Assembly: GCA_949751835.1 (NCBI GenBank)
Contig: CATKHK010000011.1
Location: forward strand, 558,327-622,326
Direction of reading: 5' to 3'
DNA length: 64,000 nucleotides
Origin: Blepharisma japonicum
Lineage: Eukaryota > Ciliophora > Heterotrichea > Heterotrichida > Blepharismidae
Shown: piece by piece, positions 3,621 to 34,051 of the stretch
How positions within the stretch are numbered: position 1 is the stretch's first letter
Layout: the number at the start of each line of letters is the position of its first letter
Notes under the pieces: model-generated
Seen by the model: only the letters and a program-made list of their open reading frames with translations
Database searches by the model: none
What the model was told of the DNA's origin: nothing
Position numbers and translations under genes: made by a program

Positions 3621-3639
3621 AGTAGATATTTTATGTCCT

Positions 3640-3815: not shown

Positions 3816-3827
3816 AACTCCCACAAA

Positions 3828-5324: not shown

Positions 5325-5396
5325 AATATTAAACAATCATCTACAATTTAATTCTTTTTGTAGCTAGAACTAGTAATATAAGATATATATTAATTA

Positions 5397-7440: not shown

Positions 7441-7507
7441 TTAGCAAAATAATATTTGAAGGTATTTATTATTAACTCATTTTTTGCATCTAATAACCCC
7501 AATCTTC

Positions 7508-9521: not shown

Positions 9522-10616
9522 CTATAGTCCGTTGATACGTACCAAGAGCTCTTCAATTTCTTGATCACCTAAGATTTCTCTTCTTCCTTCTGATCATTCA
9601 TCAGCATTTGTCCTATCGATTAGCTCTTCCTCACGAAAAGCTAGAATTTCATCGATATCGTAACCATTGTTTTTTATGCTCGGAAAGTGTTCTGCGATTT
9701 TGTAATAGTTCTTCAATCCGATTTCATCTATTGCTCTCTTAAGAGATTTCAATGTTAAGAGCCTATGAAAGCGGTTTAAACAATCTTCATCATCTTCTGG
9801 CCATCTCGCATCAAGTTCATTGATTTGGTTAAAATACATTGGGCATCTTTTATCATTTCTAATTCATTCAATGTTGTGAGCGTATATATCATTTCCTGTA
9901 TAGTCTTTATCACAGTCTGCTTCTTTTTTCCCACAAAAATAGCACCATTTAGTCTGGCACACTGTACAAGTCATATGAGTGCAGTACTCATCTTTCCTCC
10001 CAGCAAGCCCACATTGCGGACAGCGTCTTTTCTCTCCCTCTTCAATAGCATTGTCAATTTCTTTCTTTAAAGGAAACAGCTCAGCACAAACTTGGTGATA
10101 AAAGAAGCCATCTGCAAGCATCTTTTCATATTCTTCTTCAATTTCTTGTTCGTTTTCATAACTAATGAATTGTCTATTAGAGAATTCTTCATAGTCTGGC
10201 AGCTTTACATTTTTATCACAGAAAATGCATGTAACATCTTCACATGAAGGATTTCTGCAGTAAAATAAGGTAGCTGTGGATGACTTAAGTCATATTTCGA
10301 AATAATTGCATTTTGGACATCATTTCATATTTTCGTTATCTGCAATTTTGGTGGAAGCAATATGGAATTGGTAGGTCGTAAGCAAAGCAGGAGAAAGCTG
10401 AGACTCAAAATTCAAAGCTGGAATTTCTACATTGCACATCGGGCATTTAGGGGGAAGGTTCGCTTGGTAGTCTTCAAAAATGCTTTCTACAAATGATTTT
10501 GAACAATCTGAGCAGAGGTTATGATCTTGAAGACATTTAATGCCTATATGATCTTCTTTAAGTTCTATACCACAAGCATAGCAGGAAATCTTTTTGTTAT
10601 CTTTACTATCTGACAT
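9522..10616 (-). CDS. RBR-type E3 ubiquitin ligase-like protein, array copy 5
   Basis: A 364-residue protein, first of the second subgroup. RING1 CLQDHNLC, IBR with two TGA-encoded Trp residues (WCPKC and FEIW), and Rcat CPQCGLAGRKDEYCTHMTC with the presumed catalytic Cys. The frame runs through another TGA-Trp near 9594 to a TAG at 9522, giving a C-terminal extension rich in Glu and ending INGL. Copies 6 and 7 end alike (INSL, IENL), which supports reading through that TGA and fixes the true end. Copies 1-4 lack this extension. The substrate is unknown. Confidence 0.87.
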
Positions 10617-11575
10617 TTATAAAACTAATTCCGTATCCGCTCATTTTTCTTTGAAACAAAATTGTAGATGAAATTACCTATTTTATAATTAATTGTAGAA
10701 AGATACTTTTAAATTAAATCGATTATAAGCACAAATGCGAAAGCAACATTCGAAGACTTGATAAGCTAGCCAGTATATCTTTTATTTTCGCATCATAATA
10801 ATAACAATAATAATTCAAATTCGATTTCAATCTCTCTGTAAAGTGATTTGCATAATGTCCTTTATTCCTCTTGGTGAAGCCGGGATTTTTTCTTTCAAGC
10901 ATTTCTGCATACACTTTTATTTCATAAATTCTTTATTAAAAAGATTTCAAAATAAAGGAAAGGAGCAATATTTTTAGTTGAAATAGATTGTATAAGGATT
11001 AATCAAAGGAATATTGCCTTTTATTAGCTCTGAGCCAATTTTCTGGATAAATTTCATCTTTTGAAGTACTTTCTTTGTCTTCTTCACTAGATTAAGTTGC
11101 TCTAAAAAAGCCAGATGGCTTCAGCTTCAAATTCATCACTTTACGCTTATTATAGTAATTATTCCTTAAAATTTTTAAAGGATTATTTTGTCTAGGTATT
11201 TTTGTGAGGTATTTTGCCAAGGTATTTATTAGGTATTGCCATTAGTGATGTTAATACCTATATGAGATGTAAAATGCATACTTATAATTATAGTGCTCTT
11301 AATAAATTATAATTTAGTCTCAACAAAAAATTAAAAATCGTAAATTAATAATACCCATAAGTTATAGAGGAATACACAATGGCCATTAATATTGCAAAAA
11401 TATAATTATGCTTATTTTTGATAATCTAGGTAAAAAAATTGTAAATTATAAGTTTATTTCCAAATATTCTAACCTCCTAATTTTTGTTAAAATTGAAATT
11501 TTTAAAAAAATAAAACCCAGCTTTGGTCAAACCATTTATTCTAAATTAATAAATTAAGAGTTCAAATACCTCTTC
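10617..11575. other. Spacer between RBR copies 5 and 6
   Basis: No intact gene. A 63-codon minus-strand frame (10723-10914) looks somewhat protein-like, but it has no ATG-led context, family match or duplicate, so it is not called as a gene. The part from about 11230 to 11480 resembles the spacer repeat family. Confidence 0.5.
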
Positions 11576-12685
11576 TTATAAGCTATTAATATGCAATAAG
11601 ACATCATTGAGTTCTTCATCACTTGAGTCTTCACTTTCTTCTTCTTCTTCTTCTTCTTCTTCTGACGACTCATTAGAATTTGCCCTATCGATAAGCTCTT
11701 CGTCAAAAGCTAAAATTTCATCAATATCGTACCCATTGTTTTTTATGCTTGGAAAATGGTCAGCAATTTTGTAATAGTTATCCAATCCAATGCTATTTAC
11801 TGCTTTCTTAAGAGATTCTAATGTCAAGTGCCTATGAAAGCGATTTAAACAATCTTCATCATTTTCTGGCCACCTCGTATCAAGATCATGAATTTCATAA
11901 AAATGCATGGGACATCTTTTATCGTTTGTGGCTCAATCAGGATTGTGACCGTATATACCATACCTTGTAGGATCTTTATCACAATCTGCTTCCCCCTTCC
12001 CACAAAAATAGCATCATCTAGTCTGACACACTGAGCAAATCATATGGGTACAGTTGTTATCTTTTCTTCCTGCAAGTCCGCACTGTGGACAACGTCTCAT
12101 TTCTCCTTCATCAATAGCATTGTCAATTTTTTTCTTTAAAGAATACAAATCAGCACAAGTTTGATGATAAAAGAATCCATCTTCAAGCATCTTTTCATAT
12201 TCCTGTATAATTTCTTGCCCTTCTTCATAATTAGAAGAAACTCTTTTACAAAATTCTTCATAGTCTGGTAGCTTTACATTTTTGTCACAAAAAATGCATG
12301 TTACAAATTCGCATGAGGGATTTCTACAGTAAAGTAATGTAGCTGTGGATGACTTGAGTCATATTTCGAAATAATTGCATTCGGGGCATCATTTCATTAT
12401 TTCGTCTTCCGCTATTTTTGTAGAAGCAATATAAAATTGGTAGGTTGCAAGCAAGGCAGGAGAAAGCTGGCGCTCAAAAATTAAAGCTGGAATTTCTAAT
12501 TTGCATAAAGGGCATTTGGGAGGAAGGTTTGCTTGGTAATCTTCAAATATATTGTCTACTAATGTTTTTGAGCAATCAGAGCAGAGGCTATCGTCTTGAG
12601 GACATTTTATGCCTATATGGTCTACTTCAAGTTCTGCCCGACAGCTATAACAGAAATTCTTTTTGTTATCTTTATTGTCTACCAT
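11576..12685 (-). CDS. RBR-type E3 ubiquitin ligase-like protein, array copy 6
   Basis: A 369-residue protein. RING1 reads CPQDDSLC: the zinc-ligand His is Asp, as in copy 1. IBR and Rcat (CPQCGLAGRKDNNCTHMIC, then TGA-Trp, CYFCG) are complete. The tail contains an uninterrupted run of about ten Glu (a GAA/GAG microsatellite near 11635-11665), then SEDSSDEEL and the subgroup ending INSL before TAA. The acidic run is the longest in the family and could vary in length between alleles. Starts at ATG 12685. Confidence 0.86.
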
Positions 12686-13288
12686 TTATAAAACTAATTA
12701 TTTATTGGCTTATTTTTCTTTTTAAATTGTAGATCATATATATTTTTTAGACGAATTACATTTTATAAGTAAATCAAAATCCTAAAGATATCAGAAGACT
12801 TTATAAGCAATTATATAAATCTATTTCTATCATAAAATTATTTGGTCGCTTTATTAATCCCTTCTCCAAGAACCAGCAACAAAAAAAATAAAAGAATTTT
12901 TGATAAAATTAATATGATTTTATTTCATGCAAATATAGATCAATATTGAAGCTTTTTGAAGATTATTTTAATTAATTATATATATATTGATTTATTCTTT
13001 GTAAAAATTTTATATTGATTTCTCAAAATCAGGATTTTTATATTATTTTGCTAACTACTTATGGGAAGGATCAAGTAGGATTAAAAAATACAAAGAACTA
13101 ATAAGTATTTGCATTTATAAAAACTAAGGGCAAATTTAACTAATTCCAAGAATTAATTTTATATTTTATTACAGCCTACCACATGATATCTCAATAAAAC
13201 CAAATTATAATAGTTGAACAAATTAGCAAATTAATTTTCTCTTAAAAAATATTAAAAATAAAATTAAAGATTGAAGATGCAAGCTTTC
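12686..13288. other. Spacer between RBR copies 6 and 7
   Basis: Very AT-rich. I see no gene, RNA or repeat here beyond simple A/T runs. Confidence 0.5.
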
Positions 13289-14395
13289 TTATAAATTTTC
13301 AATGCCAGCTGCTAAAACTTCAATTTCCTCGTCGCTTCCTTCAAAAGAATCTTCATCGCTTAAGCTTCTCCCTTCAGAAAATTCATCTGCGTTTGTCATG
13401 TCAATCAGTGGCTCATCCTTCAAAGACAAAATTTCTTCAATATTATACCCATTGTTTTTTATGCTTGAAAAGTGCTCAGCAACTTTATAATAGTTGTTTT
13501 CTCCCATTTCTTCAATAGCCTTCTTCAAGGATTTTAATGTCAAGAGCCTGTGAAAACGATTTAAACAGTCTTCATCATTTTTTGGCCATCTTTCATCAAG
13601 CTCATGAATTTGGTTAAAATGCATTGGACATCTTTTATCATTTCTGATTCAACCTATGTTATGAGCATATATATTGTTTCCTGGATAATCTTTATCACAA
13701 TCTACTTCTTTTTTCCCACAAAAATAGCACCAAACAGTCTGACAAACTGAGCAAGTCATATGTGTGCAGTATTCGTCTTTTCTCCCAGAAAGTCCGCATT
13801 GTGGGCAGCGTCTAAATTCTCCTTCTTCAATAGCATTCTCAATCTTTGTCTTTAAAGGGTACAATTCAACACACATTTGATGATAAAAAAAACCGTCATC
13901 AAGCATCTTTTCGTATTCTTCTTCCACATCTCCTTCCTCTTCATCATTAATGAAATCTCTATTAGAAAATTCTTCATAGTCGGGAAGTTTTACACTTGCA
14001 TTACAAAAAATACACGTCACATCATTACATGAGGGGTTTTTACAATAAAATAAAGTAGCTGTTGATGATTTCTCCCATATCTCGAAATAATTGCACTTTG
14101 GGCATCATTTCATAGCCTCGTCTTCCTCCAATTTTGTAGAAGCTAAGTAAAATTGGTAGGTTGTAAGAACAGCAGGAGATAGCTGACGCTCAAAATTCAA
14201 AGCTGGAATTTCTATGTAACACATTGGGCATTTTGGAGGAAGGTTTGTTTGGTAATCTTCAAATACATTATCCACGAATTTTTTGGTGCAATCAGAGCAA
14301 AGGCTGTGGTCTTGAGGACATTTTATGCCTAAATGATCTTCTTCAAGCTCAACATGGCAAGAATAGCAAGTAAGTTTTGTGTTGCTACCTGACAT
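13289..14395 (-). CDS. RBR-type E3 ubiquitin ligase-like protein, array copy 7
   Basis: A 368-residue protein at the upstream end of the array. RING1 CPQDHSLC is intact. The IBR begins after a TGA-Trp at about 14105. The Rcat is CPQCGLSGRKDEYCTHMTC followed by WCYFCG. The C-terminal tail is acidic (LSDEDSFEGSDEEIE) and ends IENL. Start ATG at 14395; stop TAA. It is divergently arranged with the succinyl-CoA synthetase gene, the two sharing a 612-bp AT-rich upstream region. It shows no visible loss of zinc ligands and may be the least altered member of its subgroup. Confidence 0.87.
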
Positions 14396-18357: not shown

Positions 18358-19500
18358 TTAATAGACTGCGACAGCAATCAAGATAGATATCTCAAGAGCG
18401 AATGCTCCTGAATCTGAATTTCCATCGCTGTCATCATCATTATTTCCATGCCCATCGTAAGCATTTTTTATTTCTACCCAATTTTCTGCCCTAGTCTCAA
18501 GCACACAGTCTTCAGCTCCAATAATGGCATTAAGCATACTTAGCTGAGTCATATAGTAATTATAGGCATTATAATCTTTAGTACTCCAATAAGTTTTCAC
18601 GCAATTGATGTCTGTTCTTGCATTGGTATTGCATTTAAATATATCTTTGCCTTCAACCCATTTAGTCCACTGTTTATTAAACTGAAGAGAAGCTGGATCT
18701 CCAGGCAATGCTGAGCAATGAGCAGTTCCTTGACTATTAAGTGAGCATTGACATTTTCCTCCTGTAATATATGGAGGATTAAAGAAATTATCTGGATTTG
18801 AGTCACAGCTCCCATCATCCTCATTAGGATTACATTCTGCACCTTGACCTTTAATCGTGCTAAATAAATCTGTGCAATAAAAGACTCTATTACGGAAGTT
18901 TTCCCAACAGATTGAATAAGGACACAGCATACTCTTGCCATTATAGCATTGGGCAACAGGATCATGGACTTTGAATGACTTATACAAATAGCAAGTATTC
19001 TGTGTAGGATCATTTCAAGAAGTTTGATTGCAAGCTGCATTGTTAACACAGTCAGAATCACTTCTGCAGCCACTTTCTCCAATTTTGATTTGCGGTACAC
19101 AGATATTATCAAGGCAATAAGTTCCAGGCTCACATGTGTCACTATTTTTGCATTCCCCACCTTTAGCAGTTCCTATACAAATTCCATCTTTGCAAGGTAA
19201 AGCATAAGTACAATCATCTGATGTTTTACAAAATTCTCCAGGCAAATTAGAGTAGGTTTGTGGAGATGGTAAGGAGCAGGAGTAGTTAAATTGATATGAA
19301 GATGTTTGATCTGGGAAACACTCGTACTTTGAGTTAGAGCATTTTCGTGAGTAGTAGGTATCAGTTAAATTATCATTATATATGCAAGTTTCTGGGAGGA
19401 AAACTTGCTCTGGAGTTTTGCAGGTATATTTGAAGCACCCCCAAGCAAAATGCATAAATGTGAGCACAAGGAGGTAAAAGAAGCTTAAAGACCTGACCAT
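18358..19500 (-). CDS. Cysteine-rich secreted surface protein with GPI-type tail (gene A)
   Basis: 380 residues. Signal peptide of about 21 residues (MVRSLSFFYLLVLTFMHFAWG), then about 250 residues with some 30 cysteines in short modules such as CKTSDDC, CKDGIC, CEPGTYC and SDSDCVNNAACN. These resemble compact disulfide modules (Dickkopf-like or EGF-like spacing). A Trp/Tyr-rich globular part follows. The C-terminus has an Asp/Asn/Ser/Gly-rich spacer and ends in a hydrophobic stretch (FALEISILIAVAVY), the layout of a GPI-attachment signal. One TGA-Trp occurs at 19015, where gene B has Tyr. The start is the ATG at 19500; an upstream in-frame GTG is ignored. Cell-surface location is inferred; function is unknown. 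Confidence 0.85.
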
Positions 19501-19503
19501 TTT

Positions 19504-19513
19504 ATTATTCACC
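19504..19513 (-). promoter_or_regulatory. Conserved GGTGAATAAT element before gene A
   Basis: Sense-strand GGTGAATAAT begins 13 nt upstream of the ATG. Seven genes of the family carry a variant of this element at nearly the same distance. Confidence 0.5.
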
Positions 19514-19713
19514 AAACTAGATTTGTGTAGTTATAAATTTATCAAAATATTTTTCTATTTATATTATTATGGCTGGACAAATAAACTTAAATTAAAAATT
19601 TTGCAAATTGCTCTCTGTTTGGATGATTGTTGAACAATTTTCAGCTATTTTATTTAAAATTATATATTATGCATCTTCGAATAACAAAAATAATATAGAA
19701 ATTCCCGATTCCT

Positions 19714-20427
19714 TAGCATAAATAATCTTTAATTATTCATATAGAAATTTATATTAAATATACAGATTAATGCAATTGACAATGGACTTGCCGGCTCCCT
19801 GAAGATCTGAGACAATAAGAGATGAGGCATTTTAAGCTCGAACAGTCATGATTAGTAGACGACTCACTATTCATAATGGAATTACTATGATTTCAGGTGC
19901 CAAGAAGCAGGAAAAGAGAGTTTTCTTATCATTAATTATAAATATTTATGGAAATCTTTAATATTTTAGCATATATAATTTTTATTTACAATTTTTTATT
20001 CATATATTATTATCAGTTCTAAGAATGTTGATATTAGAATAGCTAGCTAAAATGGCTTTAGAAAGTTAATCCTAAGTGACTTGAAATTTTTAATTGCTTA
20101 TAAATATATAACCTTCGGAAAAAAGTCAACTATTTTATATAAATAATCATTTCAAATCATTTAATTAAAGTCATTTTAATTTTTATATTAAATAAATTCA
20201 AAACGCAATATTTACTTACTATTAAAAATGATAAAATTTTAATCTTCGACCAAATTGCGGATGTGGGAAATTTTCAAATAAATATGCTAGGTAAATGCCT
20301 ATCTGTTAAAAGACGTATTACGAATATTTTTCTTATTTAATAGATTACCATAAGATTAGAATATTAATTTTAGCTTAATAGACTGCAATAGCAGTTAAGA
20401 TTGATATGCCTAGATCAAAAGCTCCTG
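19714..20427. repeat. 0.7-kb tandem repeat, unit 1
   Basis: About 714 bp aligning with the following unit (20428-21107) over nearly its full length, with shared blocks such as CCCTGAAGATCTGAGACAA. It ends with a truncated 3' end of a Cys-rich gene (20372-20427, encoding ...ILTAIAVY and a TAA stop). Confidence 0.8.
20372..20427 (-). pseudogene. Truncated 3' end of a Cys-rich gene
   Basis: Matches the last codons of genes A and B (hydrophobic tail and stop) but is cut at the tandem-repeat boundary, with no upstream coding sequence attached. Confidence 0.75.
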
Positions 20428-21107
20428 AGCATAAATAAGCTTTAATTATTCATATAGAAATTTATATTAGCCAAACAGATCAATGCAGTTGACAATGGAC
20501 TAGCAGGTTCCCTGAAGATCTGAGACAACAAGAGACAAGGCATTTTAAGCTCGAACATCATGATTAGTAGGCGACTCGCTATTCATAATGGAATTACTAT
20601 CATTTAAGGTGCTATGAAGCACGGGAAGAGAGTTATCTTATCATTAATTATAAATCTTTATGGAAATCTTTAATATTTTAGCATACATAATTTCTATTTA
20701 CAATTTTTTATTCATATATTATTATCAGTTCTAATAATGTTAATATTAAATTCGCTAGCTGAAGTGGCTTTAGAAAGTTAACCCTAACTGACCTGAAATT
20801 TTTAATTGCTAATAAATATAATCGATTATGTTAATAAAATGCAAAAAGAGTAATTTTTATATTTCAATAAATTCAAAACGCAATATTTACTTACTATTAA
20901 AAATGATAAAACTTAATTTTGGACCAAAGTGCGGTTGTGGGAAAAATTTCAAATAAATATGCGAGGTAAATGCCTATCTGCCAAAAGACGTATTACGAAT
21001 TATTTTTATTATTTAATAGATATATCCATAAGACTAGAATCTTAATTTTAGCTTAATAAACTGCAATAACAGCTAAGATTGATATGCCTATAGCAAAAGC
21101 TCCTGAG
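20428..21107. repeat. 0.7-kb tandem repeat, unit 2
   Basis: The second unit, about 680 bp. Its end overlaps the real 3' end of gene B (stop at 21053), showing that the duplicated block is the downstream flank plus the last codons of a Cys-rich gene. Confidence 0.8.
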
Positions 21108-22768
21108 TCATTGCTGCCATCAGTGTCATCATCGTTATTGCCATGCCCATCATAAGCGTTTTTTGCTTCTAAATTTCCCTTGCATAAAATAGCAATATAT
21201 AGATAAATACTGCTTTAAGGCAAAAGGTTTAATATATATCTACGATAAATAATTTAGAATCTTTGCAAAATTTATTATTTTCATTATTTTCTAAAGTATA
21301 AAGAATTTAATTGCTTAGCCCCTATGGTGAGAGAAAAGTTTTATGCTTCTGAATTGGGATATAAATTTATGCTTTTTCTAATAATTTACTAATACCTAAT
21401 ATAATTCTTTTCTCAAAAAAGGTAAACTATTCCATACACGGAACCAAAATTTCTCATACTCTAGTAACTCTGCATTTGGAGTTTGATTCAACAGGTGGAA
21501 TAATTTCACTTATGGACCCGAATCATTTCATAAAAAAGCTATTAAAAGATATTTTCTTATAATAAAACTTACTAATTTTAAAAAATTAAATAAATTAAAT
21601 TTTGACAAGCAAAAGACGTTTTTGCCAACATAATTTTCACAATGTATATTTTTAAAAATAGATTAGATTAATAGGAAATACAATAAATTAAAATTTCAAT
21701 AATCAGAAAATTGGAGAAAAAATTTTTTTCTTTACTGAAGGATAAGTAATTTTGTGCTAAAGTCTGTAGAACACAGTCTTCCGCCCCTATAATAGCGTTA
21801 AACATGCTTAGCTGGGTTTGGTAGTAGTTAAAAGCATTATATTCTTTTGTGCTTCAATAAGTTTTCACACAATTGATGTCAGTTCTTGAAAATGTATTGC
21901 ATTTAAAAATATCTTTGCCTTCAACCCATTTAGTCCACTGTTTATTAAACTGAAGAGATACTGGATCTCCAGGCAATGCTGAGCAATGAGCAGTTCCTTG
22001 ACTATTAAGTGAGCATTGACATTTTCCTCCTGTAAGATATGGAGGGTTAAAGAAATTATCTGGATTTGAGTCACAGCTTCCATCATCTTCATTAGGATTA
22101 CACTCTGCACCTTGGCCTTTAGTTGTGTTAAATTGATCTGTGCAATAAAAGACTCTATTATCGAAGTTTTCCCAACATACTGAATAAGGACATAGCATAC
22201 TCTTGCCATTATAGCATTGGGCAACAGGATCATGGACTTTGAAAGATTTATACTCATAGCAAAAATTCTGTGTTAGGTCATTGTAAGAAGTTTGATTACA
22301 AGCTGCATTGTTAACGCAGTCATAGTCCATTTTACAGCCACTTTTTCCAATTTCGATTTGTGGGACACAGATATTATTATTGCAATAAGTTCCAGGCTCG
22401 CATGAAGCACTATTGGTACATTCTCCACCTTTGGCAGTTCCTACGCAAATCCCATCTTTGCAAGGGAAAGAGTAAGCACAATCATCTGATGTTGTACAAA
22501 ATTCCCCAGGTGAATTGCTGTATTTTTTAGGTGTTGGCAGCGAGCAAGTGTAATTAAATTGGTATGAAGACGATTGATCTGAAAAACATTGATACTTTGA
22601 ATTAGAGCATTTTCGAGCGTAATAGGTATCAGTTAAGTTGTCATTGTAAACGCAAGTTTCAGGAAGGAACACTTGTTCTGAAGTTTTACAGGTATATTTA
22701 AAGCAACCTCTAGCCAAATGCATAATTGTGGACAAAAAGAGTACAAAAAAGCTTAATGACCTGACCAT
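21053..22768 (-). CDS. Cysteine-rich secreted surface protein with GPI-type tail (gene B), interrupted by a TA-bounded insertion
   Basis: Close paralogue of gene A with the same signal peptide start (MVRSLSFF), the same Cys modules and the same tail (hydrophilic spacer, then ISILAVIAVY). The first part reads from ATG 22768 through a TGA-Trp at 21854 to about 21743. A 573-bp segment (21170-21742) then intervenes, and the C-terminal part resumes down to a TAA at 21053. Removing the segment between two TA dinucleotides rejoins ...AQNY-L-EAKNAY in frame, against AENW-V-EIKNAY in gene A, and gives exactly 380 residues, the length of gene A. Without removal the protein would lose its anchor signal. 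The gene thus looks functional only after DNA elimination. Confidence 0.83.
21170..21742. mobile_element. TA-bounded insertion in gene B, IES-like
   Basis: 573 bp starting at a TA and followed by another TA (21743-21744), with TAA directly repeated at both edges. It is very AT-rich, non-coding, and absent from the same codon position in gene A. Precise loss of one TA copy plus the interior restores the reading frame. No terminal inverted repeat is obvious. This matches the definition of a ciliate internal eliminated sequence, though elimination itself cannot be observed here. Confidence 0.8.
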
Positions 22769-22771
22769 TTT

Positions 22772-22782
22772 ATATATTCACC
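22772..22782 (-). promoter_or_regulatory. Conserved GGTGAATATAT element before gene B
   Basis: A variant of the family element GGTGAATAAAT, starting 14 nt upstream of the ATG. Confidence 0.5.
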
Positions 22783-23243
22783 AAATTCGATTAATTGTAA
22801 AATATTTTTAGCAAACATTTTTGCATTAATGCTGTATTATAATATTTTTTAAACATCATAAAGCAAAAATTTGAATAAGCATTATATAATGAAGTAGCTT
22901 TTAGGATGCTATTGAAAATAAATTATTTTAGTAAAGATTGTAGTAGGTATAATAAGTTTGAAATAGCAGATCATAAATAATGCATAAAATACAACTGAAT
23001 ATATTATCAGATTAATACTTATTTATACTTCAAACTTGAGCAATATGCCAATAAAATTTCAATTTTTTGAGACTCTAAATAATTTTCTGCTAGAGTCTCT
23101 AGTACAAAATCAGCTTCAATAATTGCATTAAGCATATTAACTGAATGATTTTGGTAGTAAATAAAAGTATTATAATCTTTAGTACTCCAATAAGTTTCAA
23201 TCAGTTGCCGTCAAATCTTGAAAAAGTATTGCATTTAAAAATA

Positions 23244-23935
23244 TAATATTGTGTGAAAAATATTTTTAATATACTTCGATTTTAAGTTATATTTTTCTAC
23301 TGATGGCAAGAAGTTATCCTCCCTATGAATAGTTTTTTTATATATCAGATATTAGTTTTTGGTGTATAGATATATCCAAGTGCCATTCAGTCTCTAAGCG
23401 AGAAGCTTGAATCTCATATCACATTTAATGAGTTAACAAGCCAATGCTCATTTGTATCATTTTGTCAGCAACGTTCGAGTCTAGCAGGGTACTCTCACAA
23501 TAGACAAGCGCGGGTTAACTACTAAAGATTTTTTGTAGTTCTCCAAACTATAAAGCTGTTAGCTCCTTAATATAACACCAGAAAAAATATGACAAGTTCG
23601 ACGATAAATTTCAAAGGTTAAAGTCACTAGAGTTTATAAAATAAGTAATGTGAGACAATTCACTGGCTCTCCAAATCTTGCCAATAGTAGACTATACTGG
23701 AAATGGAGATGCCCGAAAAGACATATTTTGGCCAAATAGAGCTTTACCTCTAAAAAACCCAAAATTTTGGCTCAGCATCAGCTATCTTATGTGTCGCTAC
23801 CCTGAGGTGCTCTGGTAAATTAATGAGGCAGCAGGAATAGGGGCTGAAAATATCTTTACTGCTTAATCTAAGTCATATTTCTGTAAAAATAATGCCATCA
23901 TAATAACTGCAAAAGAATCTTATTTAATCTAGCAA
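23244..23935. mobile_element. TA-bounded insertion 1 in pseudogene C
   Basis: About 690 bp between TA dinucleotides, breaking the homology to genes A/B between the codons for KCNT and the KW region. Candidate ends TATTGTG and (inverted) TATTGCT resemble each other. The exact left TA is ambiguous (23242, 23244 or 23247). A short protein-like plus-strand stretch near 23690-23820 is not recognised. Confidence 0.65.
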
Positions 23936-24185
23936 TAATTTCTTGGTCTCCTACCATTTAGTCCACTGCTTATTATATTGAAGAGAAGCTTGATCTCTAG
24001 GCAATGCTTAGCAATGAGCAGTTCCTTGACTATTAAGTGAGCATTAGCATTTTCCTTCTGTAACATATATAGGATTAAAGAAATTATCTGGATTTGAGTC
24101 ACAGCTCCCATCATCCTCGTCAGAAATACAAAATGCATCTTGACCATTTATTATACTAAATAGATCTGTGCAATAAAAAACCATT

Positions 24186-24424
24186 TAAGCAAGAGTACAT
24201 TAGATATTACCTATGACCTTAAAAATCCTCTATGGGGTAGGCCTGCCCAGATCTACCTTCTCCACTTCAGTGAATTGGGTCTACAAGCCTTTAGTTCGCT
24301 TGATTCGTTGCACCAAGGCACGCCTCTGCATTATGCCACCTGATTTGATGGCTCAACCCATTTTATGCAGAAATGCTTATCAGGCATATATATAGTCTTT
24401 GAGTCTATTCAATAAAAAAATAAA
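24186..24424. mobile_element. TA-bounded insertion 2 in pseudogene C
   Basis: 239 bp between TA at 24186 and TA at 24425. Deleting it restores alignment with gene A (ATTA then a 13-nt stretch ending TTTTCCC). The interior, about 24220-24385, is strikingly GC-richer than the region, unlike the AT-rich pseudogene around it, and has an open plus-strand frame of 60 codons with no recognised product. Confidence 0.7.
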
Positions 24425-24736
24425 TATAAAAATTTTCCCTGCAGATTAAATAAAGACACAACATACTCCTCCCACTATAGCATTGGGCAATAGGATTATG
24501 GACTTGAATGATCTGTATAAATAACAAGTGTTTTGTGCAGGATCATTGCAAGAAGTTCGATTACAAGCTGCATTTTTAACGCAGTTATAATTATTTCTGC
24601 AGCTACTTTCTCAGTTTTGATTTGTGGTACACAAATGCTGTCTTTACAATAAGTTCCTGGCTCATATGTAGAGCTGTTAGCACATTTTTCACCTTCAGCA
24701 GCTTCTACACAAACTCCTTCTTTGCGGGATAAAGAG

Positions 24737-24944
24737 TAAATTATTTTTTTATGTAATGTTCAAATTTGGGAAAGAAAAAAGCCCCCAGAAATTGCCTATT
24801 CCTTGAAGAGCAAAGAACAAAGATGCTCTATTGCTTACTGATGGAGAGAGCGCTAGTATAGCCCGAACCTCGTTTTTACTTGGGCTATGCAGATTAAGTC
24901 AAGATAGTGCTATTCCTTCCATTTTATATTATCAATATACAAAG
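24737..24944. mobile_element. TA-bounded insertion 3 in pseudogene C
   Basis: 208 bp. Left edge AGAGTAA, right edge AAAGTAA. Removing TA-to-TA gives GAGTAAGCACAA, identical to gene B at this place. The interior contains a small hairpin (ATAGCCC ... GGGCTAT, about 24857-24888). Confidence 0.8.
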
Positions 24945-25238
24945 TAAGCACAACCAGCTGATGTTTTATAGAATTCCTCCAGTCAAGTTATCATATCTTA
25001 ATGGTTCTGGCAGAGAGCAAGTGTAGTTAAATTGATATGAATACGTTTGATCTGGGAGACACTGATACTTGGGATTAGAGCGTTTTTTGAATTAAAGGTA
25101 TCAGTTAAAATATCGTGAATAAACAATTTTTTGAAAGTAAATTTACTCTGGAGTTTTACAGGATTATTTATATCAGCTCTGATGCAAAAACGCAAAAATA
25201 AACAAAAAGAGCAAGCAAAGGCTAAATAGTTTTTCCAT

Positions 25239-25705
25239 TTTATTATAATTAATATAAAGCTATTTAGTTTAATATATTTTATGATATAACGCAGATTATA
25301 AAGACAAAATTTGATCTATAAGATAAATATTTTTTAAAAAGTGCATTATCGAACTCATCACTGATTTATCAATAATAATGAAGGCATGAAATAAAATTTG
25401 ATATTAGAGAGGAGCAAATTTAAAAATTAATGTTAAGCACAAAAATTTTTGCTTTTCCACTGTTTTTGTATCTCAATTAAATGATTTAAAGTGAACAATA
25501 GCCTAGATATGCCAAAGTTTAGTGTTAGAAATTCTAAATCGACATATGGCAAAAAATCGCAGCTGCGAGGAACTCTCTTTTCAAAGATATAATGAAAAAG
25601 TCTGTAATTGACTCATGCCAAAATGGTCCATAATTTTCAAAAATTTCATATCTAGGTTTATTAGAAGAATTTAAAAGTCAACTATCGATTAACTTAAAGC
25701 CTTAC
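25239..25705. other. Spacer between pseudogene C and gene D
   Basis: 467 bp, AT-rich, no gene or repeat recognised. Confidence 0.5.
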
Positions 25706-26791
25706 TTAAAAAGCCACAGCCTCTGCATTTGAATTTATGAATGCATTTTGAGCCTGCACATAATTTTCAGCAAATGTATTTAGCACACAATCTTCTACTC
25801 CAACCAACCTATTATATAAGCTATTCTGTAAGCTATAATAGACAAATGCATTATATTGCTTGGCGCTCCAATAAGTCTGCACACAGTTGCTATCAAATCT
25901 TTTAACTGTATTGCAGTTCAACAACTCTGGACTGTTTATCCATTGATTAAAAATATTCATCCATGGCTGGTTAGGTGCATCTCCAGGCATAAGCTCGCAA
26001 TAAGAATTTCCCTCACTATTTAACCCACAATCGCATTCTCCCTCTATGGAGTATGGAGGAGTAAAGAAAGAATCTTCATTAGAATAGCATCCTCTTCCAT
26101 TTACATCACATTGTGACCCTGGACCTTCCAAAGTATAGAATAAATCTGTGCAATAGCTTTTTCCATCAGAATTCTGAGCGCAGTAGTAATATGGACATAA
26201 AGTGTGGTATCCATAATAGCACTCTCCAACCTCGTCATGGACTTTAAATGAATGAAAGCCATAGCAAGTGTTTTGGAAAGGATTGGAATAGGAAATAACA
26301 TTGCAGGCTGCGTTATTGACACAATCGAAGTCCCAAGTACAGCCAGATTCCCCAATTTGAAGCTGTGGGATACAAGTGTTGTTGGTGCATCTTAAGCCAG
26401 GGTTACATTGCTCGCTTCAGCTGCAATATTCCCCATTTGAAACTCCTACACAAATTCCATTTTGGCATGACAAGGAAAGCCCAGAAGAACAATCGTCGTC
26501 TGTTTTACACCATTCTCCTGGGTAACTATTGACTGGAGCAACATAAGCTTCTTGGCAGGTATAGTTGAATTGATATGAAGAAGAATGCTTCTGGTCTGGA
26601 TAGCATTCAAGAGAACTATCCTGGCATGGCTGAGCGTAGTAAGTATGTGTTATGTTGTTATTGAAGCCGCATTGATTGGGATACCAGATCTGGTCTGGAG
26701 TTTTACAAGTGTAGGCTGAACAATCAATGCCAAAAGCTAAGCTAAGACCAATAGACAGCTGGAGAATCAAAATCATGTTTGGCATCGCCAT
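25706..26791 (-). CDS. Cysteine-rich secreted protein without GPI-type tail (gene D)
   Basis: 361 residues. N-terminal hydrophobic signal (MILILQLSIGLSLAFG within the first ~22 residues). The Cys modules follow the family order: CKTDDDC, CQNGIC, CNPGLRC, DFDCVNNAACN, a CPYYYC stretch and a late NCNTV...NCVQTYW block. A TGA-Trp at 26417 joins the two open stretches. Unlike A, B, F, H, J and K it ends soon after the conserved CVLNTFAENY region (…NSNAEAVAF, TAA), lacking both the hydrophilic spacer and the hydrophobic tail. The product is therefore probably freely secreted rather than membrane-anchored. The first of two close ATGs (26791) is chosen. It is the most diverged member of the A-D group. 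Confidence 0.84.
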
Positions 26792-26796
26792 TTTAT

Positions 26797-26807
26797 ATTT
26801 ATTCACC
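26797..26807 (-). promoter_or_regulatory. Conserved GGTGAATAAAT element before gene D
   Basis: An exact copy of the family element, starting 16 nt upstream of the ATG. Confidence 0.5.
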
Positions 26808-27011
26808 AGCTTTGATTTAATTTTAATTTTAGCACTTTATGTGAGTATAATAATTTTCAAAAATTTTAAAATAGAAAAATATTAAGAAAAATAAAATTTT
26901 TGTTGACTTAAGCTTTAAAATTGCAAAAATTTTTTTAAGTCCACAATAGCTTTTTTTACAAATAAACATGATTTATTTGGTATACCATTTTTATTCTTCA
27001 CCTGCCTCATC

Positions 27012-28286
27012 TTAATCTGTATCATCTGGATTATCCCAGGTCCACCAAGCTGAATATTCACTAACAAGGTCGCTTATATTACTTTCTGCCTCTGTAAAAT
27101 CCATTAAATCCATCCCTTCTTCTGTATAAGATCTTATAAAACGTTTTTTCCTAAAAAGCTTACAAAAAATCTCACCTATTTCCTTGAAAATATTGGCAAT
27201 GTAATTTCCATTCAAAATTGATGATGCACTTGCCATTGAATTTACAGGCGGAACTTGGCATGATTCACACAAAAAATTATTAGGAATTCAATTAACAAAT
27301 CATGAAGATTCATTGCTTTTTATTTCAGCAATAGAATCTTCAAGCTCTTTTTCTGAGTAATTCCCTCGAAAAATAGCTGAAGCTGCATAAATATACTGAT
27401 GATTTTCATATTTCTTTGATAGCAAAAAATTATCAGGACTTAGCATTCAATTAAAAAATTCTAAAATTTCCCCATTTGGGCTTTGGTTATGCATTTCCAT
27501 ATGCGAAATTGTAAAAAAATGCAGCCTAGGAAAGGGCCGTAAATTCATAATTGTTTTCCTTCAATTAGAATTCAAGCTGCATGGAAATCTTATTGATGAT
27601 GTAACACCAACCATTGCTGAACTAATAATTTGATTTAAGTAAGAATAACTCGGACCTTCTAAGTCTTTGCTGATAGAGTCATTATCTAAAACCACGCAAG
27701 AGTCTGAATTTTCTGTCAATTTATCGATAGAAAATATTTCATTATAAACTTCAATTGGAATATTTGACGATCTGGATGGAAAAACTGTAAAGTTCTCGAT
27801 TACTTTAGTAGGATTTTGATCTCTTAATTCTGATAGAATTAAGCTTCCAAGCCCTGATCCGGTACCTCCACCTATGGAATGACAAATTTGAAACCCTTCA
27901 AGACACTCACATTCTTCTGCAGATTTTCTGATTACGTCAAAGATACTGTCTTTTAATTCTAGGCCTAAAGTTTTATAACCTTTTGCTCAGATACCTTGAG
28001 CTCCTGTGTGGCCAGAAATAAGTTTATCTGGCCTATAAAGTTTTGATAAAGAAGAACAGCGCAGCTCATCTATGGTTTGAGGTTCTAAATCGATCATAAT
28101 TGCTCTTGGATAGTATTTTGAGTCATTTTCATCCAAATAGCTGTCTATTTTAGTAAGCTCTTTATCAAAACTCCCATAATATTTGCCCTCCTTATCGATT
28201 TTGTGCTCATCTAAAAGTACTTCTCAAAACTTTGATCCTATCGAATTTCCACATTGGCCAATTTGCAAATTAATGATCTCTCTCAT
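27012..28286 (-). CDS. Divergent beta-tubulin
   Basis: 424 residues against about 445 for typical beta-tubulin. It begins with the beta-tubulin autoregulation tetrapeptide MREI, then IGQCGNSIGSKFWE. The nucleotide-binding glycine loop is GGGTGSGLGS and the C-terminal half has IRFPCSLN, PFPRLHFF, VNWIPNN and FTEAESNISDLVSEY. Conserved Trp residues (FWE, IWAKGY, NWIPNN) are encoded by TGA, the strongest evidence here for the altered code. Differences from housekeeping tubulin are spread throughout, and the acidic tail is reduced to DNPDDTD preceded by Trp residues, removing most sites for polyglutamylation/glycylation. It lies inside the Cys-rich array, 117 bp from gene F. Probably a specialised or relaxed isotype. 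Confidence 0.93.
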
Positions 28287-28403
28287 TATATAAATAACTA
28301 TTAATTGAAAATATTTTTACAGGATTGATATTTTTATCATTTGTAATGAATATTTAAAAATAGTCAGCCTCAAATATTATAAACCCTTAATATTAAGGAT
28401 TAT

Positions 28404-29522
28404 TTAATAAAGGATGAATCCAACCAGTAAATTTATTCCAAAAGGAACCGGAGAATTATCATCAGAATCGCTTATGCCATCCAATCCTTTAGCATAGGCA
28501 TAATCTGAAGCCACAGTGTTTATTACACATTTTTTGCTTCCAATGATGTAGCTATACAAGTTGAAATAGTTTTGCCAGTAAAACAATTCATCAAAATTTT
28601 TGCTGTCTCAATAATCCCGTATGCACTTAAATTCATTTCTCCTGGCTGTATTACAATTAAAAATAGCATAACTTGAATACCATTTTGCTCAGAAACTTAA
28701 TAAAGAAACTCCAGGGCCATCACCAAGGAAAATCTCACAATGAGACTTTCCTTCTGAGTTATAACCACAAGAGCACGCTTGATTGGCAACAAATGGAGGA
28801 TTAAAAAAATTATCTGGGTTAGAAGGGCATTTATCTAGGTTTATTCTGCAAAGTGATGCTGGCTCTAAGTTAGATGCAAGTAAATTGGTGCAATAATAAT
28901 TGCCATCAGCTCCATTTTTAGCACAAGTAAGGTATTTACATAATAAACTCCTTAAGTTAAAGCAGCCTCCAACTGGTGTATGTGGCTCAAATGTAAATAC
29001 TTGAAAACAAGTGTTAGATTGTGGGTTTTCTGCAGATGTGAGATTGCAGGCACCATTATTTACACAATCATAGTCACTTAAACAGCCATTATTGCCAATT
29101 TTGATTTGAGGGGCACATTTTTGATTGCGGCAATAAGTCCCTGGCATACAATTATAATTTGATATGCAAGGCTGATCAGCATGAACTCCTTGGCATTTTC
29201 CATTGACGCAGCCATTGCTCCAAACAGAATCACACTGAGCTTTTTTTTGACATTTTTCTCCAACCTCGCTTATTCCCAAACTAAAATGATTATCTGTGCA
29301 AGTTTTATTTTGGAAATTTAAATCATAAGTGCATAGTTTACCATCTGAACACTCTTTTGAATAATAAACATAGGCTTCTTCATCATAATAAACACAAGTG
29401 TTGTCTTCAAAAGTCATAAATGGAGGCTTACACAAATAGCTGGGACATAAAATTGAGCCTATAACAGTGTGATAAAGATATTCTAAATGGTATAGTAAAA
29501 AAATGCGAAGCTTTAAGTCCAT
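28404..29522 (-). CDS. Cysteine-rich secreted surface protein with GPI-type tail (gene F)
   Basis: 372 residues, first of a second subgroup (F-K) whose members start with CPSYxCKP or similar. Hydrophobic N-terminus, Cys modules (CKKAQCD, CVNGKC, CMPGTYC, SDYDCVNNGACN) and a PDNFFNPPF motif shared with A and B. A late WYSSYAIFNCNTARR region contains two TGA-Trp codons (about 28587-28690). The tail is GISDSDDNSPVP then FGINLLVGFILY, a GPI-type signal. The signal peptide is less regular than in the sisters (several Tyr/His). Starts at ATG 29522. Confidence 0.83.
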
Positions 29523-30230
29523 TTTTGAATTTATTCAACAATATGATTTTTAATAAAAATGAAACTTTTATAGAAGAAGATTAAATCCAAATAGTTTTAT
29601 ATTTTACATGAAAAATCTATTCTTTGAAAGTTATAATGGCTGATCTTTGAAATTAAGAGGATTGCATATTATTAGCAAGAATAAATGCAAGCATTTTTTT
29701 AGCTGATTTTGCAGGTGAATAAAATCTATAATGAAACTTTATTATTCTAAAAAATTTGATACTGAGGAATTTATTCATTCTAATGATTTCTAGAAAAAAT
29801 TATGCTATCAATTTTAATATTAGAATCCCTTTATATTTTCTTTAACTAAATTAAGCAGATCCTATCTATTTTACAGATATAAATATAATATTTTTAAAAA
29901 AGATCTATTTAATATTATAAGTTTCTAATCTTATTCATATCAGATAAAGAATAAGTTATTTTTAATGATCAACTAAATAAATTTATCTTTTCCTAAATTG
30001 TTTAAGAAATACTTTGGAGTAATTTTAATTTTTCAAGTTTTGATTTGAAAATAGAATTTTCAAATAATTAAATTCAATTTATAACAGATTTGTATAGATT
30101 AAAATTGAAAATAATTGTAAATATAGAAACTATAGGAAAATTATAAATTGATAATAGATATCGCTCTATCATAGATAATTCTATCTTAAAATAACAATTC
30201 TTAAGCTTATTTAAGACTATTTAAGGGAGG
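29523..30230. other. Spacer between gene F and pseudogene G
   Basis: 708 bp with no gene. The part from about 29885 aligns with 32350-32646, the 3' flank of gene H, so the G and H units were duplicated together with their downstream flank. Confidence 0.6.
29529..29539 (-). promoter_or_regulatory. Conserved GTTGAATAAAT element before gene F
   Basis: A variant of the family element, starting 17 nt upstream of the ATG. Confidence 0.5.
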
Positions 30231-31243
30231 ATAAACCCTACCACCATTGAGATCCCCAAGGTGACTGCAGAATCATCAAGATCAGTTATACCATTCAATT
30301 TGCTGCATATGCATACTGATAAGTCACAGTTTCTATTACACATTTTTCACTTCCAACTATAAGGTTATACGCATTGAAATAGGTACACCAATAATACAGT
30401 TCCTGAAAACTTTTTCACCCCAATAATTCTTCATGCAATGAAATGAGTCTCTATTTACTATATTGCATTTTAAAATTCTTGGACTTGAGTACCAGCTTGC
30501 CATATAACTCAAATATTTCAATCCAGGGGCGTCTCCATAGATAAGGCTGCAATAAGAGTTTCTATCTATATTATAGCCACATTCGCAAGCTGAATTGTCA
30601 CTAAATGAAGGTTCAAAAACTATTTGACTTTGAAGAGCATTGTGTACTAAACATCTCGCAAGGGAAGCGAAATAGCCAAGTGCGGTCATCAAGTTTGTAC
30701 AATAATCATCATTGGCGTAGCAGGCCCTATCCATTTATGCTGCTTCCAACAAGCGATTGTGGCTCAAACGATAATACTAAGTAGCAAGCCGAATAGTTGA
30801 GGATTTGATTTGACAGGCCGCGCTATTTATGGAGTCGTAATTATTTAAGCACCCTTTCTAGCCAATTTAAGTTTGAAGAGCGCATATCTGATTTAGGCAA
30901 GTGTTTCTAAGCATACAGACCATACTTGAGCTGCAAGACTGGCCTGCTGAAGTTCCTTGGCATAGTCCATTATTGCACCTAGAAGTTTTAATAGGAGGGC
31001 AATCAGATATTTTAGCACACTTTTCTCCAGGCCCACCTGATCCAAAATAGTTTTGAGTGTCTGCACAGGTTGTATTAAAAACGTTTGGAGTATTGCAAAT
31101 TTTATTATCTAAACATTCTTTTGACTAATAAATATCTGCTGTTTGGTCATAGTAAACGCAAGTTTCATTATTAAAATCCATTTGTGGAGGCGTAGATGGA
31201 GTATTCAAAAGAGGAGAAACAAAACATGAAGTCTAAGGTTCTT
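30231..31243 (-). pseudogene. Cys-rich surface-protein pseudogene G
   Basis: Closely related to gene H over its whole length, including both flanks, but the position of the start codon reads AAG instead of ATG and there are several frame-breaking deletions (signal peptide region near 31190, around 30690, near 30410) and stops. The C-terminal tail is cut to ...FILP. High similarity to H suggests a fairly recent duplicate that decayed. Confidence 0.82.
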
Positions 31244-31772
31244 TTTATTTTATTCACCTGTAAGATTGTATTAAATATGATCCAAAATCTACACATAGAA
31301 ACAACATTAATATTTTAAATAAAATATTATGTTGTTTAAAATTTTTTAGCTAAAAATGCTTCGTAATAAAAATCACTGTTAGTATTAAAACGTTTGCTTA
31401 ATTTTTTGAACTTTAAAAGAATTAAGATATTTTTCTATAGATTTAAAAAAAGATAAAAATATATGGAAAATATATATAAAATAAATAAAAATCATTGAAT
31501 TATTATGTGACATTCTAATCTTATTTAATTGTAAGAATAAGATGCTGGAACATTAAAAAATCATAATAGAAGCTTTGTTTTTTGAATCAATATTTCTACT
31601 TATGATTCAATAAATATAGTCTATCTGTAGCAATAGATCGGTAATGCCAAGTGCCAAATTTATAAAAATGGCTAATCTCGAAAAAAATATAAATTAGTCC
31701 TTGGTCTCTTTTATTATTTATATGCATCTCATACCAATTAATTCAATTTTAAAATCCTTAATATTAAAGATT
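31244..31772. other. Spacer between pseudogenes G and I
   Basis: 529 bp. The first ~200 bp resemble the 5' flank of gene H; the last ~110 bp resemble the 3' flank of gene J. No gene. Confidence 0.55.
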
Positions 31773-32342
31773 TTAAGAAAAGACGAATCCAATTACTATT
31801 GAAACTCCAAAAGTGACAGTGACTGCTGAATCGTTATCTTCAAATCACTCTTGCTATCCAATTTTGCTGCGTATGATACTGATAAGCCACAGTGTTTACA
31901 ATGCATTTTTCTCAGTCTTAAAGAAGGCTATACACATTGAAATAGGTGCACCAATAATAAAGCTCCTTGAAACTTTTTTCGTCCCAAAAGTCCTGTATAC
32001 AATTAAAAGATTCTCTATTATTAGTATTGCATTTCAAAATTGCTGGACTTGAATATCAGCTCGCCCAATGGCTTAATAATTTCAATCCAAGTCCAGCTTC
32101 ATAATTAAGTTTTAATGTGAAGTCCTATATTGGTTATAGCCACAAGTGCAAGCTGCTGTCACATAAAATGGAGTATCAAAAAAAGTAACTTCCTGGGATT
32201 GGCAATCTGCATAGCAATATATCACCGGAGCTTGTGAGACTATAGGGTTTAAGCAATAATATTTACTATCAGCGCTGTTTTGTGTGCAATTCAAGTATTT
32301 GCATAGTTTTTTTCCCCGTCTGTGCAGTTTCCAACTGGAGTG
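31773..32342 (-). pseudogene. Cys-rich surface-protein pseudogene I, 3' half
   Basis: Aligns with the C-terminal half of gene J (stop and tail at 31773, then the NCNT and CGYN regions) with several frame breaks. Homology stops abruptly near 32342, where sequence like the 3' flank of gene H begins. A 5' remnant of the same type lies on the far side of gene H (33975-34051). Confidence 0.78.
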
Positions 32343-32646
32343 TTTTTACAGAGATACTATGATAATTTTTAAATAAGAACTATTTAATATTCGTAAGTTT
32401 CGAAATTATTCATATAGCAGAAAAGCTCTTTTGCAGGGCTCACTAATTAAATTTATCTTTTCCTAAATTAAAATTTGTTAATACTTCAGAATAATTTATT
32501 TTTTACAGATCAAATTAAGAGTTTTGATATTTTAATATAGAATTTTCAAATCATTAAATCAATTGATAACAAAAACTTTCATTATCAAAGATAATGCTAT
32601 CTTAAAAATAAGCCGGAATCTTATAAATCTTAATATTTAAGACTAT
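32343..32646. other. 3' flank of gene H
   Basis: 304 bp AT-rich sequence paralogous to about 29885-30230. No gene. Confidence 0.55.
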
Positions 32647-33750
32647 TTAAGAAAAGATGAATCCTATCATCATTGAAATCCCCAAGACGATTGCAGAATC
32701 ATCAAGATCAGTTATACCATTCAATTTCGCAGCATATGCGTACTGATAAGTCACAGTTTCCATTACGCATTTTTCACTTCCAACTATAAGGTTATACGCA
32801 ATGAAATAGGTATACCAATAATACAGTTCCTGAAAACTTTTTTCATCCCAATAATTCATCATGCAGTGAAATGAGTCTCTATTCCAAGTATTGCATTTTA
32901 AAATTCCTGGACTTGAGTACCAGCTTGCCATATAACTCAAATATTTCAATCCAGGGCCATCTCCATAGAAAAGGCTGCAATAAGAGTTTCTATCTATATT
33001 GTAGCCACATTCGCAAACTGAATTTGCAATAAATGCAGGTTCAAAAAAATTATCTGGCTTAGAAGGGCACTCATTAGTAGACGTCATGCAAGGGGAAGCA
33101 AAATCATCAAGTGAAGTCATCAAGTTTGTGCAATAATAATCATTGCTAGTCCCATTTTGGGCACAGTTCAAGTATTTGCATAGCAGGCTCTCTCCATTTA
33201 TGCAATTTCCAACAGGAACATGTGGTCCAAATGAGAATGCTAAATAGCAAGTGTTTTCTTCTCTATTCGTCTGAGATATGATTTGGCAGGCCCCGTTATT
33301 TACGCAGTCATAATCACTTAAGCATCCTTTCTGGCCAATTTCAGTTTGAGGAGCGCATTTCAGATTTACGCAAGTGTTTCCAGGCATACAGGAAGTAAAT
33401 GAACTGCAAATCTGGCCTGCTGAAGTTCCTTGGCATATTCCATTGGCACATCCATTAGTTGTGCCGCAGTCAATGTCCTGCGTACATTTTTCTCCAGGTC
33501 CACCTAATCCAAAAAAGTATTGACTGCTTGAACAGGTAATATTATAACCATATGGAGTATTGCAAATATTATTACCTGAACATTCTTTTGAGTAATAAAC
33601 ATCTTCTACTTGGTCATAATAAATGCAAGTTTCATCATCAAAATTCATTTGTGAAGTCTTACAGGTGTAGCTGGAGCATTCTTTAACGCTTAAGACTGTA
33701 AGACAAAGGAAAGATAAGTTTAGAAGTAAAGAATGAATCTTAAAGTTCAT
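32647..33750 (-). CDS. Cysteine-rich secreted surface protein with GPI-type tail (gene H)
   Basis: 367 residues in one uninterrupted frame, so no TGA is needed. Signal peptide MNFKIHSLLLNLSFLCLTVLS, followed by the family N-terminus SYTCKTSQMNFDDETC. The modules CTQDIDC, CANGIC, CMPGNTC, CAPQ and SDYDCVNNGAC are in standard order. A CPSKPDNFFEPAF motif, YGDGPGLKYLSYMASWYSS and a CNTWNRDSFHC block precede the C-terminal part. The tail is TDLDDSAIV plus hydrophobic LGISMMIGFIFS, a GPI-type signal. The whole gene with flanks sits between two pieces of pseudogene I. Ligand or function unknown. Confidence 0.86.
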   Translation of the reverse strand: MNFKIHSLLLNLSFLCLTVLSVKECSSYTCKTSQMNFDDETCIYYDQVEDVYYSKECSGNNICNTPYGYNITCSSSQYFFGLGGPGEKCTQDIDCGTTNGCANGICQGTSAGQICSSFTSCMPGNTCVNLKCAPQTEIGQKGCLSDYDCVNNGACQIISQTNREENTCYLAFSFGPHVPVGNCINGESLLCKYLNCAQNGTSNDYYCTNLMTSLDDFASPCMTSTNECPSKPDNFFEPAFIANSVCECGYNIDRNSYCSLFYGDGPGLKYLSYMASWYSSPGILKCNTWNRDSFHCMMNYWDEKSFQELYYWYTYFIAYNLIVGSEKCVMETVTYQYAYAAKLNGITDLDDSAIVLGISMMIGFIFS

Positions 33751-33754
33751 TTTT

Positions 33755-33765
33755 ATTTATTCACC
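33755..33765 (-). promoter_or_regulatory. Conserved GGTGAATAAAT element before gene H
   Basis: An exact copy of the family element, starting 15 nt upstream of the ATG. Pseudogene G keeps a recognisable version. Confidence 0.5.
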
Positions 33766-33974
33766 TGTATGATATATTAAGTATTAGCAAAAATATATAT
33801 ATAGAAAGGAAATTGATTTTTTTATTAAAATTTTAGCTTCCTTAAATACTTTAGGCCAAAATTGCTCCTGAAATAAAAATAACAGATAGCATTAAAAAGT
33901 TTGCTATATCTTTTTCTTGAATTTTATAAAAATTGAGGTATTTTCACTTCTACTATTTAATATTTTAAAATCTC

Positions 33975-34051
33975 GGCTTGCACGTGTAGGTTGGACATTA
34001 ATTTACACCTAAATTTCTCTGCAAAAAAAAGCTAAAGAAGATTAAACCCAT
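33975..34051 (-). pseudogene. Cys-rich pseudogene I, 5' stub
   Basis: Matches the first ~25 codons of gene J and, beyond the ATG at 34051, about 280 bp of its upstream flank (to about 34330), including the GTCGAATAAAT element. An in-frame TAA interrupts it. It is the missing 5' piece of the pseudogene whose 3' half is at 31773-32342, with about 440 bp lost between. Confidence 0.75.

What the first reader, a model, noticed from the sequence alone, without database searches (positions are those of the whole stretch)
21053..22768. Gene B is whole only if a 573-bp TA-to-TA segment is removed: a probable IES caught in place
Cutting 21170-21742 between two TA dinucleotides turns a broken gene into one of exactly 380 residues, the same length as paralogue A, with residues aligning one-to-one across the junction. 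Precise TA-to-TA excision is the hallmark of internal eliminated sequences in ciliates. The insert is AT-rich, lacks obvious inverted ends and has no coding content.
Basis: partly seen in the sequence, partly recalled or inferred. Interest (0 to 1): 0.82.

Follow-up and report, generated by a model that had tools for sequence, protein, structure and literature searches.

The report
TA-bounded insert kept in ciliate gene
In what looks like the working (macronuclear) genome of a Blepharisma-like ciliate, one gene copy carries a 573-base insert flanked by TA whose exact removal would give a perfect gene, so it may be germline junk DNA that was not cut out here, a modest curiosity that needs read data to settle.

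Summary
Segment 21170-21742 lies between two TA dinucleotides (full terminal repeat TAA); without it B reads 380 codons, like paralogue A, and regains a Tyr that 9 of 10 compared relatives carry. A and decayed copy C lack the insert, so B gained it. The organism reads TGA as Trp and has CCCTAACA telomeres, as published for Blepharisma, a genus rich in TA-bound IESs. But the assembly looks macronuclear: telomere repeats at contig ends, 20.4 kb of uninterrupted giant ORFs where about 18-20 IESs would be expected, and no exact Bogo-transposon end. The insert is thus present where an IES should be absent, and no copy of B without it was found. B is not simply broken: it still reads 366 residues, losing 38 and gaining 24. 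Both lineages look constrained (omega about 0.2), so the insert is young, tolerated, or removed from part of the copies. Neighbour C carries three more inserts, one with a good TA-containing repeat. Best reading: an IES-like TA insertion that escapes, or partly escapes, excision; a plain never-excised insertion is the main rival.

The parts
21170..21742 (.). the 573-bp insert (TA to TA, terminal repeat TAA)
   Evidence: unique in the assembly; GC 23.0%, no inverted ends
21743..22768 (-). gene B, first 342 codons
   Evidence: 83% protein identity to A
21053..21169 (-). gene B, last 38 codons and stop, beyond the insert
   Evidence: dN/dS 0.10 against A over this stretch
21668..22768 (-). gene B as it stands: 366-codon ORF running 24 codons into the insert
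18358..19500 (-). paralogue A, 380 codons, without insert
23055..25184 (-). decayed paralogue C, with frameshifts and three inserts; no insert at B's site
24739..24946 (.). insert I3 in C, 208 bp, repeat AGTAA (contains TA), best cut against B and tied for best against A
   Evidence: one search scored it 1 point below the best
24186..24424 (.). insert I2 in C, about 239 bp; a TA cut is possible but 4 points below the best against B and not among the nine best listed against A
23244..23940 (.). insert I1 in C, about 697 bp; no TA-containing repeat among the best cuts

Best explanation
The 573 bp is an IES-like insertion that entered gene B at a TA site after B split from A and C, and that the excision machinery of the developing macronucleus does not remove, or removes from only part of the copies, in the DNA that was assembled. 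Shown: a TA-to-TA cut that restores the whole gene, gain in B, presence in an assembly with macronuclear features, intact and constrained coding sequence on both sides. Inferred: that the insert is of germline origin, that a PiggyMac-type excisase would cut at the TAs, and that excision is weak because the insertion is young or because selection on this tandem copy is weak.
For: Repeat TAA containing TA, 380 codons and the conserved Tyr restored. A and C lack it. Code and telomere repeat as in Blepharisma; about three quarters of B. stoltei IESs are TA-bound, and 573 bp lies below the 90th percentile of 603 bp (PMC9942856). PiggyBac-family genes are in the genome. B's lineage is about as constrained as A's. 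Neighbour C has an insert (I3) with a TA-containing repeat. Large inserts were seen only in B and C among the family copies examined. Partly excised sequences in the B. stoltei macronucleus are described in PMC9942856.
Against: The insert is in an apparently macronuclear assembly, and no copy of B without it was found. GC of 23% is below the 33.3% given for B. stoltei IESs and equals local spacer DNA. No inverted ends, no repeat copies. On nucleotides alone a 568-bp cut scores slightly better against A, and shorter cuts against C. I1 and I2 in C give little or no support for TA ends. No germline data.
Confidence: 0.5

Rival explanations
1. An ordinary TA-targeted insertion (relic of a Tc1/mariner-like or other element, or filler DNA), fixed in germline and soma and never excised. 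B is then a gene with an altered end or a very young pseudogene.
For: The insert is in the assembled DNA and no uninterrupted B was found. B stays open for 366 codons and ends in a hydrophobic stretch, as most intact members do. TA duplication is usual for such elements (recalled). Pseudogenes occur in this array.
Against: No inverted ends and no other copy. The 38 codons beyond the insert still look constrained (only 24.7 synonymous sites).
Confidence: 0.28
2. The insert is an ordinary, well excised IES and the assembly took germline reads or a germline-like molecule at this place.
For: Four inserts in about 3.9 kb of B and C is close to the published germline density of about one per kb.
Against: PMC9942856 gives retention of at most 0.02 for residual IESs in macronucleus-enriched DNA, so a consensus should lack it; genes around are uninterrupted. 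C's coding parts have frameshifts of their own.
Confidence: 0.07
3. An intron removed from RNA: 21169-21735 reads GTAAAG...TTTAG on the coding strand, 567 bp, leaving a 382-residue frame.
For: GT and AG at the ends and an open frame.
Against: Introns of B. stoltei are predominantly 15-16 bp (PMC9942806). The AG comes from the host codon next to the TA and would be there after any insertion at this TA. It adds two residues that no compared relative has.
Confidence: 0.05
4. No insertion: B's own end is the 366-codon form, the 573 bp is its spacer, and 21053-21169 is an orphan end of another, deleted copy.
For: An orphan 55-bp end copy exists at 20375-20429. C and g25706 also lack the usual end. 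Insert GC equals spacer GC.
Against: Two unrelated breakpoints would have to meet at the same codon and at a TA. The insert shows no convincing similarity to flanks of the family in the window (26 comparisons, lowest p 0.05).
Confidence: 0.07

Closest known systems
TA-bound IESs of Blepharisma stoltei (PMC9942856)
   Same: TA-containing direct repeat at the ends, inside a coding sequence, length within the published range, removal would restore the frame
   Different: Present in an apparently macronuclear assembly; 23% GC against a published 33.3%; no repeat content found; excision not shown
Weak IESs of Paramecium, more than 10% retained (PMC8354472, section 10)
   Same: Would be a recently gained, poorly excised insertion in a coding sequence
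   Different: Other ciliate class; retention at this site not measured
Bogo and BogoMITE elements (PMC9942856)
   Same: The 573-bp cut has the repeat TAA, the published Bogo target duplication
   Different: No C-rich inverted ends, no second copy, other length than the 389-bp peak
Retrotransposon sequences partly excised from the B. stoltei macronucleus (PMC9942856, section 12)
   Same: Sequence kept in the somatic genome where elimination might be expected
   Different: Those carry reverse transcriptase genes; no recognised element content here

Membership tests
Ciliate IES (Blepharisma type) | TA-containing direct repeat at both ends | tested here: met
   568 bp without repeat scores 2 points better against A but is out of frame
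Ciliate IES (Blepharisma type) | precise removal restores the coding sequence | tested here: met
   on sequence only
Ciliate IES (Blepharisma type) | absent from macronuclear DNA | tested here: not met
   present in an assembly with macronuclear features; partial excision in reads could not be seen
Ciliate IES (Blepharisma type) | present in micronuclear DNA | not testable with these tools
   no germline sequence held
Ciliate IES (Blepharisma type) | composition of IESs (mean 33.3% GC in B. stoltei) | tested here: inconclusive
   23.0% GC; published value is a mean
Ciliate IES (Blepharisma type) | excised by a PiggyMac-type excisase with scnRNAs | not testable with these tools
   PF13843 matches exist in the genome, nothing links them to this site
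Bogo / BogoMITE | published C-rich terminal inverted repeat | tested here: not met
   18-base core 0 exact matches in the genome; ends of the insert not inverted
Spliceosomal intron of Blepharisma | GT...AG ends with open frame after removal | tested here: met
   21169-21735
Spliceosomal intron of Blepharisma | length of about 15-16 bp | tested here: not met
   567 bp; 'predominantly 15 and 16 bp', PMC9942806 section 5

The most novel reading that the evidence does not exclude
B and C form a small unprocessed germline island in a somatic chromosome: several IES-like inserts escape excision together, perhaps by maternal (scnRNA-type) protection, and in B retention or removal of the insert switches the protein between a 380-residue form and a 366-residue form with a different hydrophobic end.
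Probability: 0.1. Interest if true: 0.65.

Novelty: new member of a known kind. Interest (0 to 1): 0.36.

Why it matters
A TA insertion kept in a constrained tandem gene copy would show how new insertions become, or fail to become, excised sequences in an early-branching ciliate lineage. If it is partly excised it would be a natural switch of protein ends; if it is never excised it is simply a gene-changing insertion.

Tried and rejected
Relation of the insert to other inserts or to family spacers: in 16 comparisons among the four inserts (60 shuffles each) the lowest p values were 0.02 (I2 against I3, reverse strand) and 0.05 (B insert and I1, each against its own reverse strand); in 26 comparisons of the B insert with flanks in the window the lowest p was 0.05. 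Given the number of tests I treat these as nothing. A direct repeat of 18 bases (89%) joins the left edge (21158-21175) and the interior (21338-21355) of the insert; not pursued. RNA genes: no Rfam match at gathering scores and no ARAGORN tRNA in the window (ARAGORN ran with the bacterial setting). Named folds for A: no PDB sequence match at E 0.01; Pfam only below cut-off, DUF7107 and EB.

The code with TAA/TAG = Gln was listed and dropped, because the long ORFs appear with TGA = Trp. The idea that the window is germline sequence was dropped for the long uninterrupted ORFs and the telomere repeats. Cuts of 576, 577 and 568 bp were considered and set aside for the reasons in the observation check. 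The intron row was off by one base; one search has the right one, 21169-21735. A wider base rate of inserts among tandem paralogues could not be made. My notebook (entry 2) says that 36 residues are lost and 23 gained; 38 and 24 are right.

Full report
What is there. The window lies at C11:558327-622326 of a 45.2-Mb, 224-contig genome. The long genes appear when TGA is read as Trp. Three units of CCCTAACA in a row occur 77 times forward and 91 times reverse (which lists only part of the places); the listed places on C4 and C5 are at the contig ends by the lengths, and those on C36, C47, C69, C78, C80 and C89 lie in the first 100 bases. Code and telomere repeat are those published for Blepharisma stoltei (PMC9942806, section 5). 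The species was not identified here.

The segment. Gene B reads on the minus strand from 22768. It matches paralogue A (18358-19500) except for extra DNA near 21170-21742. Cut from TA to TA, B has 380 codons without stop or frameshift. Scored with fixed outer ends against A, the 573-bp cut (repeat TAA) gets 278; a 568-bp cut without repeat gets 280 but is out of frame by arithmetic; a 576-bp cut (AATTT) gets 276. Against C, cuts of 549-551 bp get 112-113 and 573 gets 110. One search, with fixed flank lengths, favoured 576-577 bp. So nucleotide scores alone do not fix the cut; the reading frame and the protein do. The 573-bp cut gives NYLEAKNAY. Nine of the ten other members compared (C, g25706, g28404, g32647, g34466, g37112, L032, L033, L034, but not A) have Tyr at this place, and the 576-bp cut loses it. 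C is uninterrupted here and reads NYLE, and A lacks the insert, so B gained it.

Beyond chance? Random breakpoint pairs at 18-26 kb have a terminal repeat containing TA in 4.1% of 200,000 draws; restoration of the frame and of the conserved residue comes on top. TA ends are expected of IESs and equally of Tc1/mariner-type insertions (the latter recalled), so they do not tell the two apart.

Somatic or germline? In B. stoltei 39,799 IESs were placed on a 41-Mb somatic genome, about 70% of them inside genes, which fill 77% of it (PMC9942856). Three ORFs of this window (41438-48685, 49041-56294, 57863-63814) run over 20.4 kb without interruption, where about 18-20 IESs would be expected. The 18-base core of the published Bogo end occurs 0 times as an exact match (a species without Bogo would give the same). 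The assembly therefore looks macronuclear, and the insert is where an IES should not be. A search with the whole of B gave no second copy lacking the insert; the next best matches are paralogues of at most 91% (which scores only the best candidates).

State of gene B. With the insert in place the ORF runs 366 codons: 342 of B and 24 from the insert; the last 38 residues are lost. The new end is hydrophobic (mean 1.79 over 14 residues); 3.6% of 390 chance tails from local non-coding DNA reach this. Five of the six intact members of the array have ends of 1.9-2.4, g25706 has 0.5. dN/dS between A and B is 0.15 overall, 0.16 before and 0.10 after the junction (24.7 synonymous sites only). Of 182 differences, 122 could be polarised with C (B: 31 nonsynonymous and 38 synonymous; A: 23 and 30); 42 could not, and at 18 all three copies differ. 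Rough branch values are 0.20 for B and 0.19 for A. C's end is not safely alignable, so polarised counts past the junction mean little. B was constrained for most of its history: the insertion is young, tolerated, or absent from part of the copies.

Neighbourhood. C (23055-25184) is a decayed copy with three more inserts. I3 (208 bp, repeat AGTAA) is the best cut against B and tied for best against A; for I2 (about 239 bp) a TA cut is 4 points below the best against B and not among the nine best listed against A; for I1 (about 697 bp) no listed cut has TA. Three other pseudogenes of the window (D 30227-31190, E 31776-32345, the IBR-family copy at 7443-8523) show no insertion above 10 bp, D and E also losses of tens of bases (the far part of E aligns poorly). 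In the genome the family gives 106 matches; 88 are single pieces of at least 270 residues whose length differs from the query's by at most 27 residues (B itself is among the 88, as its match stops at the insert). Of the 18 shorter rows 6 are pieces of B and C. Eight more rows, in seven fetched loci (L035-L041), showed no clear large insert, but L036, L038 and L040 are partial and do not exclude one; 4 rows were not looked at. The IBR-domain family gives 8 matches, two of them overlapping pieces of one frameshifted copy, none split by a large insert.

Reading. The best-supported account is an IES-like TA insertion, gained in B, that is not or not fully removed from somatic DNA. PMC9942856 reports partly excised sequences in the B. 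stoltei macronucleus and calls excision a continuum (sections 12 and 17). [quoted passage not shown] Since absence from the macronucleus is not met here, I do not file the segment as an IES; it is IES-like. A plain insertion that is never excised is the main rival, and only reads can decide.

Papers. PMC9942856: outline, Results part 1 of 3, Discussion part 1 of 2, sections 12, 17 and 23, and search passages. PMC9942806: outline, section 5 and search passages. PMC8354472: section 10 and search passages. All others only as search listings. I make no claim that such a case is unreported.

Noticed in passing
20375-20429 and about 19716-21107: An orphan 55-bp copy of B's gene end followed by a flank that, read by eye, repeats in tandem (about 19716-20430 and 20428-21107).
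   Followed up: partly
A codons 181-300 against B: dS drops to 0.18-0.29 in the middle of A and B, against 0.48-1.7 in the other blocks, as after gene conversion.
   Followed up: no
18358-38230: Tandem array of cysteine-rich proteins of about 370 residues with a signal-like start and mostly a hydrophobic end; 106 matches in the genome, no Pfam match over cut-off for the three members scanned.
   Followed up: partly
43-14395: Tandem family of zinc-finger proteins; one member scanned matches the IBR domain; one copy (7443-8523) has a frameshift.
   Followed up: partly
27012-28286: A divergent tubulin-family gene (424 residues) inside the cysteine-rich array.
   Followed up: no
genome C112, C214, C9: PiggyBac-family (PF13843) matches with TAA/TAG stops inside, beside three long ones on C6 and C86 with TGA only.
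   Followed up: no
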